9,275 nucleotides of DNA from Staphylococcus capitis subsp. capitis (GTDB lineage: Bacteria; Bacillota; Bacilli; Staphylococcales; Staphylococcaceae): positions 1-9,275 of the forward strand of contig NZ_CP145264.1 in assembly GCF_040739495.1 (NCBI RefSeq), read 5' to 3'. The position numbers and the translations under genes were made by a program. Shown here in pieces: positions 270-8,302 of the stretch; position 1 is the stretch's first letter; each line of letters begins with the position of its first letter. The notes below the pieces were generated by a model. It saw nothing but the letters and a program-made list of their open reading frames with translations, made no database searches and was not told where the DNA came from.

Positions 270-362
270 TTATTTATTGCGGTTGTTTAGCCAAAACGTG
301 AAAATCGCAACACAGCACTCTACTATAATAGGTGCTATTATACAAACAAATATTAAACTCAT
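270..362 (-). CDS. fst: Fst-family type I toxin, 30-aa membrane peptide
   Basis: The minus-strand frame from ATG (362-360) to TAA (272-270) encodes 30 residues. It begins MSLIFVCIIAPIIVE and ends FTFWLNNRNK, a hydrophobic helix containing the IIAPIIV core followed by W-L and a charged tail, which is the signature of the Fst/Ldr family of type I toxins. In that family, peptide that escapes antisense control damages the membrane and kills plasmid-free daughters. AAGGAGGTG (minus strand of 368-376) sits at ideal spacing and fixes the start. A leader hairpin (374-398) partly covers this site, and an antisense RNA starts at about 189, so both expected controls are present. A plus-strand frame over the same DNA (154-411) has no family signature and is not coding. 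Unusual detail: a Glu-Cys-Cys follows IIAPIIV, where many relatives have glycine. Confidence 0.85.
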   Translation of the reverse strand: MSLIFVCIIAPIIVECCVAIFTFWLNNRNK

Positions 363-690: not shown

Positions 691-1551
691 TTAACTATTA
701 TAGGTAGTAGAATTGTATAGTCTATTCATTGACTGAATTATATCAATAATTTTATTCATCTTACTTTTATCATGTGACACTACTCCTACAACTCTTTTAT
801 AATTTTGTAATTTTTTTTGATATAAGTTCATACTTTCAAGTCTTGTAGTCAATGATTGGGGGGTCAAAGTAATACCTTTATTTGCTTTAACATTAGCCAA
901 TATAGTTTCATAATAATCAACATAATTAATATGTAGCTTATCTTTAAGAGAATAACTTTTAAGAAAATTATATGTATCACATGGTGGTGTTTGTATATAA
1001 ATATTCTCCTTTTTTAAGGATTTTACATTAACTTGCTTAGTGTTTGTAAACTTATTTTTATCAGCATAAGCTACAATAAAATCTTCAGTATAAATTTTTT
1101 CTATATAAAGCGAATCATTCCTTAAATTTGTAATATCACCGATAATAACATCTATATTATCTTTATAAAGTTCTTCAATTAACACTGAAGTACTATTTTC
1201 AATAACTAAAACGACATTTTTAGTAAGATAATTCCTCTCATGTAACTTATATAATGAAAAACTAGGTATGACTCCCAATCTAATTTTTCTATTTTTAGAA
1301 TTACTTATTTTATTTTTTAAATCTTTTATTTGCTCGTTCATTTTTAAAAATGAATGAAAAACAATATTTCCACTTTTAGTTAAAAAAATTCCTTTAGAAG
1401 TTCTATAAAATAAATCACAGTCAAAGTAATTTTCAATACTTTTAATTCTTTTGCTTAAGGCTGGTGTACTTATATTCAATTCTTTAGAAGCTTTATTTAA
1501 ACTATTGTATTCGACAACTTTAATGAAGTCTTTCATATAATTAAAATCCAT
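691..1551 (-). CDS. LysR-family transcriptional regulator
   Basis: A 286-residue protein of normal LysR length. Residues 1-60 form the winged helix-turn-helix: MDFNYMKDFIKVVEYNSLNK, then ASKELNISTPALSKRIKSIE as recognition helix and its approach, and LFYRTSKGIFLTKSG as the wing. The remainder is a LysR effector-binding domain (IRLGVIP at its first strand). I start it at the ATG at 1551, four codons inside the longest frame, because GGGGG lies 5-9 nt before it, the upstream ATG lacks a ribosome binding site, and LysR proteins usually begin right at this helix. It is divergent from the biosynthetic operon with about 107 bp between starts, the classic arrangement for a regulator that controls its neighbour in response to a pathway compound. 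The effector is unknown; a substrate, intermediate or product of the operon is my inference. Confidence 0.9.
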   Translation of the reverse strand: MDFNYMKDFIKVVEYNSLNKASKELNISTPALSKRIKSIENYFDCDLFYRTSKGIFLTKSGNIVFHSFLKMNEQIKDLKNKISNSKNRKIRLGVIPSFSLYKLHERNYLTKNVVLVIENSTSVLIEELYKDNIDVIIGDITNLRNDSLYIEKIYTEDFIVAYADKNKFTNTKQVNVKSLKKENIYIQTPPCDTYNFLKSYSLKDKLHINYVDYYETILANVKANKGITLTPQSLTTRLESMNLYQKKLQNYKRVVGVVSHDKSKMNKIIDIIQSMNRLYNSTTYNS

Positions 1552-1586
1552 AAAATCCCCCATAGTATTAACTATTGCTTTATACC

Positions 1587-1613
1587 TATATTAAGACATT
1601 ACTTATTCATATA
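1587..1613. promoter_or_regulatory. Candidate LysR operator (imperfect dyad) in the divergent promoter region
   Basis: TATATTAAGA (1587-1596) and TATTCATATA (1604-1613) form an inverted repeat with 8 of 10 pairs around a 7-nt spacer, in the middle of the gap between the divergent regulator and operon. LysR proteins bind AT-rich interrupted dyads at such places. I could not fit a strict T-N11-A box at the dyad centre, and I could not identify strong -35/-10 boxes for either direction, which would fit activator-dependent promoters. The DNA is very AT-rich, so chance is a real possibility. Confidence 0.35.
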
Positions 1614-1658
1614 TTTCAAGTAAAGATTTATCCTTTTAATAACAGAGGAGGTGAAAAG

Positions 1659-2138
1659 ATGATTTATTTTTCTACAGCTGAAGTAGATGACATAGATAGT
1701 GTCGCAAGCTTTCGTATGATTTTATTAAATAATGGTAAATCACATTATGGAAGTGCAAATAATGATGAACTTTTAAAAATTAAAAATCATTTTAAAAGTT
1801 GGATGAAAAAAAATTTAAAAAAAGATGATGTACATATTGTTATAAGTAAGAATGACGACGAAGAAATTATAAGTATGGGGATAGGAATAATTGATAACCG
1901 TGCCCCTGTACAAGGATCATTAAATGGTAAAAGTGGTTGGATTTCAAGTCTAATTGTTCATCCTAATTACAGAAAGCAAGGGCTTGGGAAAGAAACATTG
2001 AATACATTAATAAAATGGTTTGATATGAACTATGTTTCAAAAATCATTTTACATTCTACTAAAGAAGGCGAATTTTTATACAATAAATTAGGATTCTTAA
2101 AAGATAATGAGAATATATTTATTAAAACTATTTATTGA
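1659..2138 (+). CDS. GNAT-family N-acetyltransferase, probably acetylating an aminoketone
   Basis: A 159-residue protein of standard single-domain GNAT length. The acetyl-CoA pyrophosphate-binding motif A is clear at residues 97-113 (SLIVHPNYRKQGLGKETL, with the R/Q-x-x-G-x-G core at RKQGLG), and FLYNKLGF at 139-146 supplies the usual C-terminal motif with Tyr141 as likely general acid. I chose ATG 1659 over an in-frame start 28 codons upstream because GAGGAGGTG at 1645-1653 is an excellent ribosome binding site and the upstream extension runs into the promoter region. It is the first gene of the operon; the next starts 14 nt after its stop. Family membership is secure, the substrate is not visible. 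Given the ALAS-like gene in the same operon, acetylation of the free amine of an alpha-aminoketone is the best inference, which would also prevent such compounds from self-condensing to pyrazines. Confidence 0.88.
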   Translation: MIYFSTAEVDDIDSVASFRMILLNNGKSHYGSANNDELLKIKNHFKSWMKKNLKKDDVHIVISKNDDEEIISMGIGIIDNRAPVQGSLNGKSGWISSLIVHPNYRKQGLGKETLNTLIKWFDMNYVSKIILHSTKEGEFLYNKLGFLKDNENIFIKTIY

Positions 2139-2152
2139 GGAAGGAAACAAAT

Positions 2153-3211
2153 ATGAATGTTTTGATAATCGGTATGGGGTTTGCAGGAAATATGTATCAA
2201 CAAGTTTTATCCCATCTAAAAAAATATGATAATTACTCATTGAATATAGCTTATCACTCAAAAAGTAGAAACAATTTTTCAATAAAATACTACTCAACTC
2301 TTAGAACTGCACTTAAAGAACATAAACCTTCTTTAATAATTGTTACCGTAAATGATGTATATCATTTAGAAATTTTAAATGAACTTAAAGATTTTAAGGG
2401 AACTATTTTATGCGAAAAACCTCTTGTTGCTAATCAAGAGCAATTAGACATAATAAAAAATTCTCTTTCTAATGAAATCAATTTAATTTTAAGTACCGTT
2501 ATTCGTTTCTCACGTGCGTCTCAAAAACTAAAGAATTTTTTAAAGAATAGAAAAACTTCCATAAAAAAAATAAATTTTGTTTGGAAAAAAAATAGAATTA
2601 ATGATTACCGTCCCACAGTAGGAGTTATCAGTGAAGTTATTCATCCTTTAGATACCATTCAATGGCTTTTAGACAAAAATATTAATATCCAAAATACATT
2701 AACGACTTCATCTAATTATTCTGTTGATAGAAATAAAAAAACTTTAGATAGTGTATTTATTTTAGGAGAAACTGATGATAAAGAAGTTATTTCTGGATAC
2801 AGTAGCTTTATTAGTTTACAAGTCGAGCGATCTATTGAAATTGTGTTAAAGGATCTAGAACTAGATACACATTTTTTTATTACATTAACTTTTGACAAAG
2901 ACGAATGGTTCTCAGATAAATTAATTATTTTTCAAGAAGATCAGGAAGGTTATAAAGAAATAATTAACTTTAATAGTATGGATATTAAGACTCATTATAG
3001 TAAAAAAATAGAACGCACATTACTAATGGTTAAAAATATTTTAAATAGTGAAATGAAATCTACTGATCTTTGTTTAAAAGAGGATACATTTAGTATCCAA
3101 TCATTACTTAATGACATTTCAAAAAATGAGCCTAAAAGTGAAATTGACTATGATTTTTCTTCAAAGAACATTTTAAAAAAGAATTCAACAACATTCGATA
3201 GGATAGGATAA
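2153..3211 (+). CDS. Gfo/Idh/MocA-family NAD(P)-dependent oxidoreductase
   Basis: A 352-residue protein. The N-terminal Rossmann fold opens with MNVLIIGMGFAGNMY (GxGxxG at residues 7-12), and ILCEKPLVANQEQL at 85-98 carries the EKP motif that marks the family; Lys89 is the usual catalytic or cofactor-contacting lysine. The C-terminal alpha/beta domain contains EVIHPLDTIQWLL (161-173), where His164 and Asp167 match the family's G-x-H-x-x-D helix, though the flanking glycines are missing. The start is ATG 2153: GAGGAAGG overlaps the end of the acetyltransferase gene at good spacing, and a TTG frame start at 2135 would place the signal inside the gene. It has no sugar-metabolism neighbours, unlike most relatives, so a tailoring step on the operon's product (reduction, or redox-assisted dehydration) is more likely. 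The precise reaction is not readable from the sequence. Confidence 0.85.
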   Translation: MNVLIIGMGFAGNMYQQVLSHLKKYDNYSLNIAYHSKSRNNFSIKYYSTLRTALKEHKPSLIIVTVNDVYHLEILNELKDFKGTILCEKPLVANQEQLDIIKNSLSNEINLILSTVIRFSRASQKLKNFLKNRKTSIKKINFVWKKNRINDYRPTVGVISEVIHPLDTIQWLLDKNINIQNTLTTSSNYSVDRNKKTLDSVFILGETDDKEVISGYSSFISLQVERSIEIVLKDLELDTHFFITLTFDKDEWFSDKLIIFQEDQEGYKEIINFNSMDIKTHYSKKIERTLLMVKNILNSEMKSTDLCLKEDTFSIQSLLNDISKNEPKSEIDYDFSSKNILKKNSTTFDRIG

Positions 3212-3213
3212 TA

Positions 3214-4359
3214 ATGAAAAAAATATGGATTTTAACTATAGGTATGTTTGCCTTAGGTATGGATGCCTACATTGTAGCTGGATTAATACCTTCAATAAGT
3301 CAAAGTTTTAACAAAAATAGTTCTGCTATTGGTCAGGGAGTAACAGTTTTCACATTATTTTTCTCTATTTCTGCACCAATTTTTTCAACAATATTAGCTA
3401 AATCGCCAGTAAAAAAAATATTAGTGATAGCAATCAGTGTATTTACTTTAGCCAATATTATAACCGCAATATCTATGAACTACACGGTATACATCATATC
3501 AAGAGCAATCGCTGGATTAGGAGCTGGCGTATTCTCACCAATAGCGATAAGTGCAAGTAATCATTTAGTTTCAGAAAAGCATAAAGGAAAAGCAATCGCA
3601 TTTACAGTAGGTGGAATGAGTGTAGGAACTGTCATAGGAGTGCCTCTTGGACTAGAAATTTCGAAGCTTTCTAATTGGAGATTTGCGATGTTGGTTATTA
3701 TTGTCATTAGCTTTATTGCATTGATAAGTATTTCTATACTGATGCCTAAATTTAAAATACAGGCTCCTCCAAATTTAAAAGATCGTTTTCAATTATTCCT
3801 AAACAGACACGTCCTAAGAGTTATTTCAGTCACATTATGTGCTGCTGTCGCTAGTCTAGGTTTGTATACTTATTTGGCCGATATCATTAAAGCAAATACG
3901 GATATAAAAAGTTTAACTTATTACCTTACAGCCTGGGGCATAGGTGGATTAATAGGAAGTTTTGGCATAGGTTTTGTTATAGATAAATTTAAAAATACAA
4001 GACTTGTTATGTTGATTATTTTAATTTTATTAGCATTAAGTTTTGTTTTAATTCCTGTTTCTATCAAATTACCTCTATTAGGCTTACTACCCTTTATTCT
4101 ATGGGGGGCTATGGGATGGGCTACACAAGCACCCCAACAACATATACTACTAAAAAATCATCCTAAACATGGAGGTTCTGCTGTAGCTTTAAATAGTTCT
4201 ATTAATTATTTAGGCAGTGCTATTGGATCAGCAATCGGAGGAATTATTTTATTTAATGTTAATAATACAAACGTACTAATATATAGCGCTTTAGGAATTA
4301 CTATTATTGGTATTTTATTACAATTGTTAAATATTTCTATAGATAGGGAGAAATTATAG
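3214..4359 (+). CDS. MFS drug:H+ antiporter-type exporter (DHA1 family)
   Basis: A 381-residue, very hydrophobic protein with about 12 predicted membrane helices, the usual length for the DHA1 branch. Helix 1 has GMDAYIVAGLIP with an acidic residue (Asp17) as in AraJ/Bmr-like exporters. Motif B is present at 96-105 (SRAIAGLGAG, Arg97), and the antiporter motif C glycine pattern is at 133-146 (GGMSVGTVIGVPLG), which is characteristic of exporters rather than importers. Its start lies 2 nt after the upstream stop, behind AGGATAGGAT, and its stop directly abuts the next start codon, so it is co-translated with its neighbours. In this context it most likely expels the operon's product, providing both delivery and self-protection. 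The substrate is inferred. Confidence 0.88.
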   Translation: MKKIWILTIGMFALGMDAYIVAGLIPSISQSFNKNSSAIGQGVTVFTLFFSISAPIFSTILAKSPVKKILVIAISVFTLANIITAISMNYTVYIISRAIAGLGAGVFSPIAISASNHLVSEKHKGKAIAFTVGGMSVGTVIGVPLGLEISKLSNWRFAMLVIIVISFIALISISILMPKFKIQAPPNLKDRFQLFLNRHVLRVISVTLCAAVASLGLYTYLADIIKANTDIKSLTYYLTAWGIGGLIGSFGIGFVIDKFKNTRLVMLIILILLALSFVLIPVSIKLPLLGLLPFILWGAMGWATQAPQQHILLKNHPKHGGSAVALNSSINYLGSAIGSAIGGIILFNVNNTNVLIYSALGITIIGILLQLLNISIDREKL

Positions 4360-5547
4360 ATGTATAAAGAACAAAGTATCGCTTTACTTAATGATTTAAA
4401 ATCTAGTAATCAATATAGAGAATTTAAAGAGATAAATAGAATAGCGGGAAAGTACCCTTCAGCTTATAATTTTAATAATAAAATTAATGTTTTTTGTAGC
4501 AATGACTATTTAGGAATGTCACAAAACAAAGAAATTATGCTTTCAATGATAGATGCAATAATTAAGTTAGGCGCTGGAGCTGGGGGCTCTAGAAATATCG
4601 GGGGATCACATAAATACTTCTCTATGTTAGAAAATATGTTAGCTGAATGGCATCAAAAGGAAAGTGCACTGGTATTTCCTACTGGATATTCTTCAAATGA
4701 TGCTAGCATTCAGTGCCTTTTAAGGAAATTTCCTGAAATGATTGTATTTTCAGACTCTAAAAATCATGCTTCTATAATTAATGGCATAAGAAGCACTAAG
4801 AATCAAAAGATAATTTTTGAACATAACAATACATATGACTTAGAAAGTAAACTAAAAAATTACTCAAAAGATACACCTAAAATAATCATATTTGAATCTA
4901 TCTATTCTATGGATGGTGATGTTGCTCCAATTAAAGAGATAGTAAATTTGGCTATTAAATACAATGCTCTAACTTTTTTAGATGAAGTTCATGCAGTAGG
5001 TATGTATGGAAAAACAGGAGCAGGATATGCTGAATTATTAGGTATATCAGACAAAATAGATATCATTCAATCAACTATGGCCAAAGGAATCGGCATTATT
5101 GGAGGATATATAACAGGTGAAAAAAATATTATTGATTTAATTAGATCATTTTCTTCTGGGTTTATTTTCACTACAGCACTTCCGCCTTGTATAGTAGCAG
5201 GTTGTATTACTAGTGTAAACCACATTAGAAATTCTAATGTGGAAAGAATAAATTTAAAAGAAAAGACAAAGTATTTACGAGAAAAATTAAGTGAGTACAA
5301 TATTCCAGTTCTAAAGGAAAGTACTACACATATCGTTCCTGTAATTATAGGAAATAGTCTAAAATGTAAACAAGCTTCTGAGAAACTTTTACAAGAATAT
5401 AATATATATGTCCAACCTATTAACTATCCTACGGTAGAAAAAGGTACTGAAAGATTTAGAATTAATGTAACACCTAATCATACCCATAAGGATATTGATC
5501 ATTTATGTGAATCTATTCATTCAATTTTCAGAGAATTAAGTATTTAA
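4360..5547 (+). CDS. ALAS-like alpha-oxoamine synthase (PLP enzyme), predicted non-glycine substrate
   Basis: A 395-residue PLP enzyme that follows 5-aminolevulinate synthase almost end to end: FCSNDYLGM (45-53), GAGAGGSRNIGG (71-82), SDSKNHASII (131-140, His136 stacking on PLP), ESIYSMDGD (179-187), LDEVHAVGMYG (207-217, Asp208 and His211), Schiff-base Lys242 in STMAKGIGIIGGYI, GFIFTTALPP (267-276), YVQPINYPTV (350-359) and GTERFRI with Arg367 for the amino acid carboxylate. Arg20, Asn48 and Lys150 match ALAS residues that hold succinyl-CoA. Two departures matter. Ser77 replaces the threonine that restricts ALAS to glycine; related synthases that use larger amino acids have serine there. The PLP loop reads MAKG in place of the usual LGKA. 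AGGGAG at 4344-4349 precedes the start, which abuts the transporter stop. The likely reaction is decarboxylative condensation of an amino acid (serine or alanine) with succinyl-CoA or another acyl-CoA. The family is near certain, the substrate inferred. A role in normal heme synthesis is unlikely in staphylococci, which use glutamyl-tRNA. Confidence 0.92.
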   Translation: MYKEQSIALLNDLKSSNQYREFKEINRIAGKYPSAYNFNNKINVFCSNDYLGMSQNKEIMLSMIDAIIKLGAGAGGSRNIGGSHKYFSMLENMLAEWHQKESALVFPTGYSSNDASIQCLLRKFPEMIVFSDSKNHASIINGIRSTKNQKIIFEHNNTYDLESKLKNYSKDTPKIIIFESIYSMDGDVAPIKEIVNLAIKYNALTFLDEVHAVGMYGKTGAGYAELLGISDKIDIIQSTMAKGIGIIGGYITGEKNIIDLIRSFSSGFIFTTALPPCIVAGCITSVNHIRNSNVERINLKEKTKYLREKLSEYNIPVLKESTTHIVPVIIGNSLKCKQASEKLLQEYNIYVQPINYPTVEKGTERFRINVTPNHTHKDIDHLCESIHSIFRELSI

Positions 5548-5681: not shown

Positions 5682-5716
5682 AGTGACTAACGTAGTTGTT
5701 AGTCACTCTTTTTATT
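5682..5716. terminator. Bidirectional terminator between cargo operon and mobilization gene
   Basis: A perfect 10-bp stem (5682-5691 with 5698-5707, AGTGACTAAC/GTTAGTCACT) with a 6-nt loop is followed by CTTTTTATT on the plus strand. It lies between the operon (plus) and the convergent accessory gene (minus), whose stop codon falls inside the T-run, and closes the right side of the cargo block. Confidence 0.85.
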
Positions 5717-8115: not shown

Positions 8116-8302
8116 ATATATTTTTATAAATCTTTTTATAAACCTTTTTAGGCATTATTTGAGGCTTAGAGCGACAAGAGGTTTGAAATGATAAAAGGGA
8201 CATTTTGTAACAGTAAAAGGGACATTTTGTAACAGTAAAAGGGACATTTTGTAACAGTAAAAGGGACATTTTGTAACAGTAAAAGGGACATTTTGTAAAT
8301 TA
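8107..8302 (+). other. Replication origin: AT-rich region plus five iterons
   Basis: A strongly AT-rich stretch with repeated CTTTTTA/TTTTTATAAA (about 8109-8152) precedes five tandem 22-bp repeats beginning at 8193, 8215, 8237, 8259 and 8281. Each reads AAAAGGGACATTTTGTAA plus CAGT; the fifth lacks the last four bases. The four full units are identical. Rep_3 initiators bind such iterons directly upstream of their own gene, and one helical turn is about 10.5 bp, so 22-bp spacing places the sites on one face of the DNA. I saw no convincing DnaA box. Confidence 0.85.

What the first reader, a model, noticed from the sequence alone, without database searches (positions are those of the whole stretch)
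1659..5547. Plasmid operon resembling an alaremycin-type pathway: possible antimetabolite of heme synthesis in staphylococci
Seen: four abutting genes encode a GNAT acetyltransferase, a Gfo/Idh/MocA oxidoreductase, an MFS exporter and a close ALAS homologue, with a divergent LysR regulator. Known: staphylococci form 5-aminolevulinate from glutamyl-tRNA, so an ALAS is not needed for heme. As I recall, Streptomyces alaremycin (5-acetamido-4-oxo-5-hexenoic acid, an analogue of 5-aminolevulinate that acts on porphobilinogen synthase, HemB) is made by an ALAS homologue using serine and succinyl-CoA, an N-acetyltransferase and an oxidoreductase/dehydration enzyme, with an MFS exporter. Inferred: this operon makes the same or a related acetylated aminoketone, giving the host a weapon against competitors. 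I know of no description of such a cluster on a staphylococcal plasmid.
Basis: partly seen in the sequence, partly recalled or inferred. Interest (0 to 1): 0.93.

Follow-up and report, generated by a model that had tools for sequence, protein, structure and literature searches.

The report
Plasmid heme-blocking antibiotic operon, skin Staphylococcus
A small plasmid of the skin bacterium Staphylococcus capitis carries a five-gene unit that is predicted to make and export an alaremycin-like fake building block that would block heme synthesis in neighbours, and plasmids of related staphylococci carry just the regulator and exporter of this unit, likely as protection.

Summary
The window is the complete 9275-bp plasmid of S. 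capitis DSM 20326. Four abutting genes (GNAT acetyltransferase, Gfo/Idh/MocA oxidoreductase, MFS exporter, ALAS homologue) lie opposite a LysR gene. The chromosome has its own glutamyl-tRNA reductase and one HemB, so the ALAS is not needed for heme. The ALAS has serine at R. capsulatus Thr83, reported to direct amino-acid choice: serine in 66 of 67 rows of its clade, threonine in 25 of 25 housekeeping rows. In Pseudomonas relatives, 28 of 29 fetched serine-type loci have GNAT and Gfo directly downstream; in a Bacillota family, 1 of 2. Six gammaproteobacterial loci add an asparagine-synthetase-like gene, which fits the amide primocarcin (recalled). New here: 14 plasmid records of S. epidermidis, S. 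hominis and S. casei match only LysR+MFS; around the pair in the seven fetched, GNAT, Gfo and ALAS are absent. That fits detached immunity. Best reading: an alaremycin-type (5-acetamido-4-oxo-5-hexenoate) pathway aimed at HemB. Product, substrate and activity are untested, Alm sequences were not compared, and serine-type ALAS with only an EamA transporter also exist.

The parts
691..1551 (-). LysR-family regulator, divergent to the operon (alternative ATG at 1563)
   Evidence: HTH_1 and LysR_substrate; NCBI annotation 691-1551; found together with the MFS gene on plasmids of S. epidermidis, S. hominis and S. casei
1564..1658 (.). divergent promoter region; conserved up to 1637 on the three LysR+MFS-only plasmids compared
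   Evidence: blastn matches ending at window 1637 in L098, L099 and L100; imperfect inverted repeat 1592-1604/1618-1630
1659..2138 (+). GNAT N-acetyltransferase, predicted to acetylate the aminoketone
   Evidence: PF00583 41.8 bits; relative directly downstream of ALAS in 28 of 29 serine-type loci of Pseudomonas relatives and 1 of 2 of a Bacillota family
2153..3211 (+). Gfo/Idh/MocA oxidoreductase-fold enzyme, predicted to form the exocyclic double bond (loss of water)
3214..4359 (+). MFS (drug-exporter type) transporter, predicted exporter and self-protection
   Evidence: MFS_1 147 bits; best NCBIfam Cmx/CmrA 151.8 bits, below its cut-off 400; 92-96% identical copies without the biosynthetic genes on five fetched plasmids; dN/dS 0.15-0.20 on the three compared
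4360..5547 (+). ALAS homologue (alpha-oxoamine synthase), predicted to join an amino acid other than glycine (serine favoured) to succinyl-CoA; Ser77 replaces R. capsulatus Thr83
   Evidence: TIGR01821 526.4 bits; residue mapping to 2BWN; clade and residue counts
5682..5707 (+). terminator-like hairpin followed by a T-run, after the operon
   Evidence: pattern scan, 11 pairs; 3 sites found against 1.3 expected in shuffles, so weak alone

Best explanation
The operon encodes a predicted alaremycin-type pathway: the ALAS homologue would condense an amino acid, likely L-serine, with succinyl-CoA, the GNAT would acetylate the amine, the Gfo/Idh/MocA enzyme would likely remove water to give 5-acetamido-4-oxo-5-hexenoate or a close relative, and the MFS protein would export it as a likely weapon against the HemB of competitors. 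Shown by sequence: gene set and order, retained catalytic residues, the Thr83-to-Ser change, the separate clade, the independent heme route of the host, the recurrence of GNAT and Gfo beside such ALAS in two phyla, and free-standing LysR+MFS copies on plasmids of neighbouring species. Inferred: substrates, order of steps, product, target, and the exporter's protective role. The LysR protein would sense the compound or an intermediate and switch on the exporter and operon.
For: ALAS family 526.4 bits. R. capsulatus positions Arg21, Asn54, Asn85, Ser137, His142, Asp214, His217, Lys248 and Arg374 are unchanged while Thr83 is Ser77 (the roles of these residues are recalled). PMC4525017 (passages): Thr83 directs amino-acid specificity. 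PMC11906848 (passages): ALAS has Thr there, E. coli AONS and serine palmitoyltransferase have Ser, and smaller residues there widen the range of a related enzyme. Ser in 66 of 67 clade rows (Ala in one), Thr in 25 of 25 housekeeping rows; of the 120 listed protein relatives, not chosen by residue, 109 of the 110 that fit the motif have Ser. The clade is one side of a branch, SH-aLRT 99. GNAT+Gfo downstream in 28 of 29 serine-type loci of Pseudomonas relatives and 1 of 2 in a Bacillota family; 0 of 1 threonine-type locus there and 0 of 67. AsnB-like gene in 6 of 6 loci L003-L008, matching recalled primocarcin, the amide of alaremycin. GluTR and a single HemB on the chromosome. LysR+MFS without GNAT, Gfo or ALAS in 7 of 7 fetched plasmid stretches; exporter under purifying selection in the three compared.
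Against: No product, activity or expression data. Ser at position 83 also occurs in cyclizing actinomycete ALAS and in AONS, so it does not by itself name serine. Other mapped positions also differ (51, 53, 114, 115, 117, 145, 277). A Gfo/Idh/MocA enzyme is not an obvious dehydratase. Serine-type ALAS with only an EamA transporter and no GNAT/Gfo exist in at least four loci, plus a divergent pair on a Priestia plasmid, so the residue change is not tied to the full pathway. One serine-type locus, L156, has an internal stop and no partners. The Alm proteins could not be compared. The LysR+MFS pair could serve against another drug.
Confidence: 0.62

Rival explanations
1. The ALAS homologue uses L-alanine (or another small amino acid), and the operon makes a saturated acetylated 4-oxo-hexanoate (5,6-dihydroalaremycin-like), with the Gfo enzyme as a reductase or desaturase.
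For: AONS (alanine as its substrate is recalled) also has Ser at the equivalent position (passage in PMC11906848); the Gfo fold is an NAD(P) oxidoreductase fold.
Against: The recalled alaremycin route starts from serine; a recurring extra enzyme fits a step that needs the hydroxyl of serine.
Confidence: 0.17
2. The enzyme is an ordinary glycine-using ALAS, and the operon makes or modifies 5-aminolevulinate itself (extra heme precursor or N-acetyl-ALA).
For: TIGR01821 score above the curated cut-off; automatic annotation hemA.
Against: Thr83 is Ser in 66 of 67 clade rows; the host already has GluTR and HemB; no heme gene is on the plasmid; GNAT and Gfo have no place in heme synthesis.
Confidence: 0.08
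3. A C5N-type (2-amino-3-hydroxycyclopentenone) pathway with a cyclizing ALAS, as in actinomycete secondary metabolites.
For: Thr83-to-Ser is a marker of cyclizing ALAS (passage).
Against: The window enzyme keeps Ile at 149 and Thr at 365, where cyclizing ALAS have Leu/Val and Ser; two Streptomyces plasmid ALAS that I take for the cyclizing kind lie outside the clade; no acyl-CoA ligase or amide synthetase among the plasmid's genes. The fourth published marker, position 231, could not be mapped (Glu in the structure's sequence).
Confidence: 0.04
4. The free-standing LysR+MFS pairs on plasmids of S. epidermidis, S. hominis and S. casei are a general efflux system unrelated to this compound, and the biosynthetic genes were added to it in S. 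capitis.
For: Closest named MFS family is chloramphenicol efflux Cmx/CmrA, though below cut-off; pairs occur on several replicon types.
Against: MFS relatives 36-47% identical sit in the Parageobacillus, Rahnella and Pseudomonas-type clusters too, so this kind of exporter goes with the pathway.
Confidence: 0.2

Closest known systems
Alaremycin (alm) pathway, Streptomyces sp. A012304 (Okui et al. 2025; only the reference line seen)
   Same: Alaremycin acts on porphobilinogen synthase (review passages).
   Different: Other phylum; carried on a 9.3-kb plasmid typed as mobilizable by PLSDB; divergent LysR; exporter module also found alone in neighbours. Alm sequences not compared.
Primocarcin (recalled: the amide of alaremycin)
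   Same: Same carbon skeleton is expected from loci L003-L008, which add an asparagine-synthetase-like gene.
   Different: The window has no such gene, so the free acid is expected.
Housekeeping 5-aminolevulinate synthase (HemA of Alphaproteobacteria)
   Same: Family model, catalytic residues; 45-52% identity to loci L009-L082.
   Different: 29 aligned positions with under 6% overlap between the clade and housekeeping rows, Thr83 to Ser and Ser87 to Gly among them; no heme gene on the plasmid.
Cyclizing ALAS of C5N compounds (actinomycetes)
   Same: Thr83 to Ser.
   Different: Ile149 and Thr365 retained; partner genes absent; separate place in the tree.
Epifadin of nasal S. epidermidis (PMC11310079, listing and start of abstract only)
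   Same: A non-bacteriocin-class antimicrobial of a human-associated staphylococcus.
   Different: Non-ribosomal peptide/polyketide type product; unrelated genes.

Membership tests
Alaremycin-type pathway | ALAS homologue outside housekeeping ALAS | tested here: met
   One side of a branch with 66 other rows, SH-aLRT 99, quick tree with long-branch warnings
Alaremycin-type pathway | ALAS homologue uses L-serine and succinyl-CoA | not testable with these tools
   Ser77 at the amino-acid-specificity position is compatible with serine or alanine
Alaremycin-type pathway | N-acetyltransferase gene in the cluster | tested here: met
   GNAT 1659-2138
Alaremycin-type pathway | oxidoreductase/dehydration enzyme in the cluster | tested here: met
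Alaremycin-type pathway | MFS exporter in the cluster | tested here: met
   3214-4359, PF07690 147 bits; direction of transport untested
Alaremycin-type pathway | sequence homology to AlmA, AlmB, AlmC, AlmE | not tested
   Paper not held, no Alm sequence identified; Streptomyces genomes could not be reached
Alaremycin-type pathway | product 5-acetamido-4-oxo-5-hexenoate inhibiting HemB | not testable with these tools
   needs LC-MS and enzyme assay
Housekeeping ALAS (heme) | Thr at R. capsulatus position 83 | tested here: not met
   Ser77; 25 of 25 housekeeping rows have Thr
Housekeeping ALAS (heme) | host needs ALAS for heme | tested here: not met
   GluTR 451.3 bits over cut-off and HemB 485.3 bits on the chromosome
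Cyclizing ALAS (C5N) | Thr83Ser | tested here: met
Cyclizing ALAS (C5N) | Ile149 to Leu/Val and Thr365 to Ser | tested here: not met
   window Ile143 and Thr358; 18 and 19 of 67 clade rows do carry Leu or Ser there
Gfo/Idh/MocA family | Rossmann GxGxxG, EKP motif, catalytic His, two-domain fold | tested here: met
   G7, G9, G12, E88-K89-P90, H164 invariant in 37 rows; fold; the role of H164 is recalled from the family

The most novel reading that the evidence does not exclude
Human skin staphylococci wage a heme-antimetabolite arms race: S. capitis carries, on a small mobilizable plasmid, an alaremycin-type antibiotic operon, and S. epidermidis, S. hominis and S. casei have kept or acquired only its LysR-controlled exporter as immunity without production. 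The same serine-type ALAS core has been dealt out across bacteria in three forms: acid type (ALAS-GNAT-Gfo-MFS), amide type with an AsnB-like enzyme in Pseudomonas, Stutzerimonas and Halomonas, and a minimal ALAS+EamA form in Macrococcoides, other Bacillota and other Staphylococcus species, possibly including the S. aureus group, which would export an unacetylated ALA analogue.
Probability: 0.45. Interest if true: 0.88.

Novelty: new member of a known kind. Interest (0 to 1): 0.74.

Why it matters
If true, a human skin commensal would make a small antimetabolite against heme synthesis rather than a peptide bacteriocin, encoded on a 9-kb plasmid with mobilization genes, and neighbouring species would carry transferable immunity without production. 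It would give a simple three-enzyme route to alaremycin-type compounds in tractable hosts, explain many genes now annotated 'hemA' in bacteria that do not need ALAS, and warn that plasmid-borne tolerance to HemB-directed antibiotics may already circulate in staphylococci.

Tried and rejected
Heme biosynthesis role: rejected because the host has the C5 route and the specificity residue differs. C5N pathway: rejected on residues 149 and 365, tree position and missing partner genes. A second, resistant HemB as self-protection: not found, one HemB match only. Gfo enzyme by sequence against PDB: no match, hence the fold search. In the fold search no dehydratase stood out; sugar dehydrogenases head the list, and oxidoreductive glycosidases and YjhC are lower among the listed rows, so the reaction is not told by the fold. 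Rfam: nothing at gathering score. Promoter scan: not above shuffles.

The bases just before the MFS start on five LysR+MFS-only plasmids resemble the end of the Gfo gene, which would suggest loss from a full cluster, but this is also the ribosome-binding region, so I do not rely on it. Reaching Streptomyces genomes for the alm cluster failed.

Literature searches for prior reports: 'alaremycin' 3 papers; 'primocarcin' 0; aminolevulinate synthase + Staphylococcus + biosynthetic gene cluster + plasmid 0; of the rows listed (12 of 24; 9 of 9; 1 of 1; 10 of 63), none has a title or abstract start that describes such an operon. Only open-licence PMC papers are searched.

Counting notes; 10 loci did not fit the motif pattern and were not counted (among them L095, which is serine-type by its translation); L001, L087, L093 and L094 are the window or its near-copies; L083/L085 and L084/L086 are the same places twice; several of the 67 threonine-type loci lie on short contigs. 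Tree and residue counts: 95 rows, namely the window, every third of loci L009-L082 without an in-frame stop (25, called housekeeping), 11 further loci picked partly for their motif or context, 2 Streptomyces plasmid ALAS, the chromosomal KBL-like protein, and of P0038-P0156 those of 385-450 residues that were numbered up to P0062 or divisible by three; L083/P0048, L084/P0054 and L091/P0075 are near-duplicates; one housekeeping row (L060) fell apart from the others. L131 and L151 repeat L003 and L005; L129 and L130 look like near-copies; the Pseudomonas GNAT query was out of frame (54 residues), so the GNAT matches rest on the window GNAT except in L131; flanks are about 1.5 kb, so AsnB and MFS were not visible; 4 of the 34 places had no locus.
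Full report
What is there. The window is the whole 9275-bp plasmid unnamed3 of Staphylococcus capitis DSM 20326 (NZ_CP103052.1, 100% over its length) and contig C4 of the held genome. Besides replication (Rep3 family), mobilization (MobV and a NikA-like protein) and an Fst-type toxin gene, the recognised genes are a LysR gene (691-1551, minus) and four abutting plus-strand genes: GNAT 1659-2138, Gfo/Idh/MocA 2153-3211, MFS 3214-4359, ALAS homologue 4360-5547.

The ALAS homologue. It passes the NCBIfam 5-aminolevulinate synthase model (526.4 bits, cut-off 338.55), and its best matches among solved structures are named ALAS (7x98, then 2bwn/2bwp), 2BWP being R. capsulatus ALAS (passage in PMC11906848). 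Mapped on that sequence, positions 21, 54, 85, 137, 142, 149, 214, 217, 248, 365 and 374 are unchanged, while Thr83 is Ser77; positions 51, 53, 114, 115, 117, 145 and 277 also differ. PMC4525017 states that Thr83 directs the amino-acid specificity of ALAS (passages). PMC11906848 states that the equivalent residue is threonine in R. capsulatus ALAS, valine in KBL and serine in E. coli AONS and in serine palmitoyltransferase, and that shrinking it widens amino-acid use in a related enzyme (passages). In an alignment of 95 rows, serine stands there in 66 of 67 rows of the window's clade (alanine in one) and threonine in 25 of 25 housekeeping rows. Some of the 67 were picked by context or motif; but among the 120 best protein relatives, not chosen by residue, 109 of the 110 that fit the motif have serine, one alanine, and 10 did not fit the pattern. 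In a quick maximum-likelihood tree the 67 rows are one side of a branch (SH-aLRT 99); two ALAS from Streptomyces plasmids, which I take for the cyclizing kind, fall outside (the tree warns of long branches). Ser at this place predicts an amino acid with a side chain; it does not tell serine from alanine.

The host does not need it. The chromosome encodes glutamyl-tRNA reductase (451.3 bits, over the cut-off) and one HemB (485.3 bits). No heme gene lies on the plasmid.

The gene set is a recurring unit. Relatives of GNAT and Gfo lie beside serine-type ALAS in Pseudomonas (2), Stutzerimonas (2), Halomonas and a gammaproteobacterial MAG (6 of 6 loci L003-L008), on a Parageobacillus plasmid (ALAS-GNAT-Gfo, then a divergent LysR|MFS pair) and on a Rahnella plasmid (MFS-ALAS-GNAT-Gfo). 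Of 398 genomes of the family of Pseudomonas sp. AOB-7, 32 have a close ALAS. Thirty of the 34 places came as loci: 28 of 29 serine-type ALAS have GNAT and Gfo directly downstream on the same strand; the exception, L156, has an internal stop; the one threonine-type locus has neither. In a Bacillota family 2 of 80 genomes have a close ALAS: one has GNAT and Gfo downstream (L127), the other an EamA transporter instead. Among the 80 loci of the first genome scan, 0 of the 67 threonine-type loci had either gene. The protein search with Gfo returned 36 proteins, where named from Staphylococcus, Mammaliicoccus, Bacillus, Rossellomorea, Aeribacillus, Xenorhabdus, Dickeya, Pseudomonas and Salmonella; 32 of them, with the window's and four from loci, align as one family with a shared signature. 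In the genus, 3 of 84 Staphylococcus genomes have such an ALAS, the window's own included.

Two variants. (a) All six loci L003-L008 insert a 617-residue protein between Gfo and MFS (in two pieces in L005); the L003 copy passes the glutamine-hydrolysing asparagine synthase model (497.9 bits, cut-off 267.1). Turning a carboxylate into its amide is what would convert alaremycin to primocarcin (structures recalled). The window, the Parageobacillus and the Rahnella loci lack it, so the free acid is expected there. (b) A two-gene operon of serine-type ALAS plus an EamA transporter, without GNAT or Gfo, occurs in the two other Staphylococcus genomes, in Macrococcoides canis plasmid pSD607 and in the Bacillota genome just named, and a divergent pair lies on a Priestia plasmid. 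Its product is open; it shows that the residue change does not require the full pathway.

Detached exporter modules. A distant DNA search with the LysR-to-ALAS region found 31 plasmid records, 30 of them listed. Fourteen (11 S. epidermidis, 2 S. hominis, 1 S. casei) match only the LysR and MFS parts: twelve at 89.5-93% DNA identity, two at about 70%; in one of the twelve (AP028323.1) the MFS region is annotated as hypothetical proteins and may be broken. Stretches of seven of the 14 were fetched: LysR and MFS in 7 of 7 (MFS 92-96% identical in five, 65% in two), GNAT and Gfo in 0 of 7, and no ALAS beyond matches of about 45 residues with E of 0.009 or more. They sit on different replicon types. 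The divergent promoter up to window 1637 is conserved on the three compared. MFS dN/dS is 0.15-0.20 with no stops in these three, so the exporter is maintained without the enzymes. Over whole plasmid records, only S. capitis (2, one interrupted) and M. canis (1) carry an ALAS at 60% identity or more, and six records carry a Gfo relative. Producers plus non-producing carriers of the regulator-exporter pair is what spreading immunity to an exported antibacterial looks like. It is not proof: the pair may act on another drug.

Limits. The primary paper on alaremycin biosynthesis (Okui et al. 2025) is not held; I saw only its reference line. No Alm sequence was compared. A second S. capitis plasmid copy (strain H17, 9274 bp) has an interrupted ALAS frame, either real decay or a sequencing fault.

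Verdict. I file it as a new member of the alaremycin kind with moderate confidence, and rate the detached exporter modules and the breadth of the family as the most surprising parts.

Noticed in passing
window 270-362 (-): Fst-type type I toxin gene, annotated by NCBI on the same plasmid (coordinates converted); no Rfam match in the window.
   Followed up: partly
window 8192-8298: 4.9 perfect copies of a 22-bp repeat before the Rep gene, likely replication iterons.
   Followed up: no
L094 (S. capitis H17 plasmid): Near-identical plasmid, one base shorter, with the ALAS frame interrupted and no hemA annotated; decay or sequencing error.
   Followed up: partly
L084/L086 (G066), P0054: ALAS+EamA pair lying between genes that look like a hemolysin/leukocidin region and groEL (by reading the translations); near-identical protein P0054 is named S. 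aureus and stands for 318 sequences. The EamA gene in L086 is split over two frames.
   Followed up: partly
P0108, P0150: ALAS named from Bartonella, an alphaproteobacterial genus, inside the window's clade on a long stem.
   Followed up: no
PMC10656689 (passages): A Serratia marcescens pangenome study lists a GNAT protein and 5-aminolevulinate synthase among insect-associated genes; P0151, named Serratia, is a close relative of the window ALAS, so it may be this cluster.
   Followed up: no
L070: A contig titled Bacillus subtilis carries an ALAS 47% identical to the window's, in the range of the alphaproteobacterial loci; probably contamination.
   Followed up: no
L098-L100: S. epidermidis LysR+MFS plasmids also carry beta-class phenol-soluble modulin genes and ABC transporter genes.
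   Followed up: no
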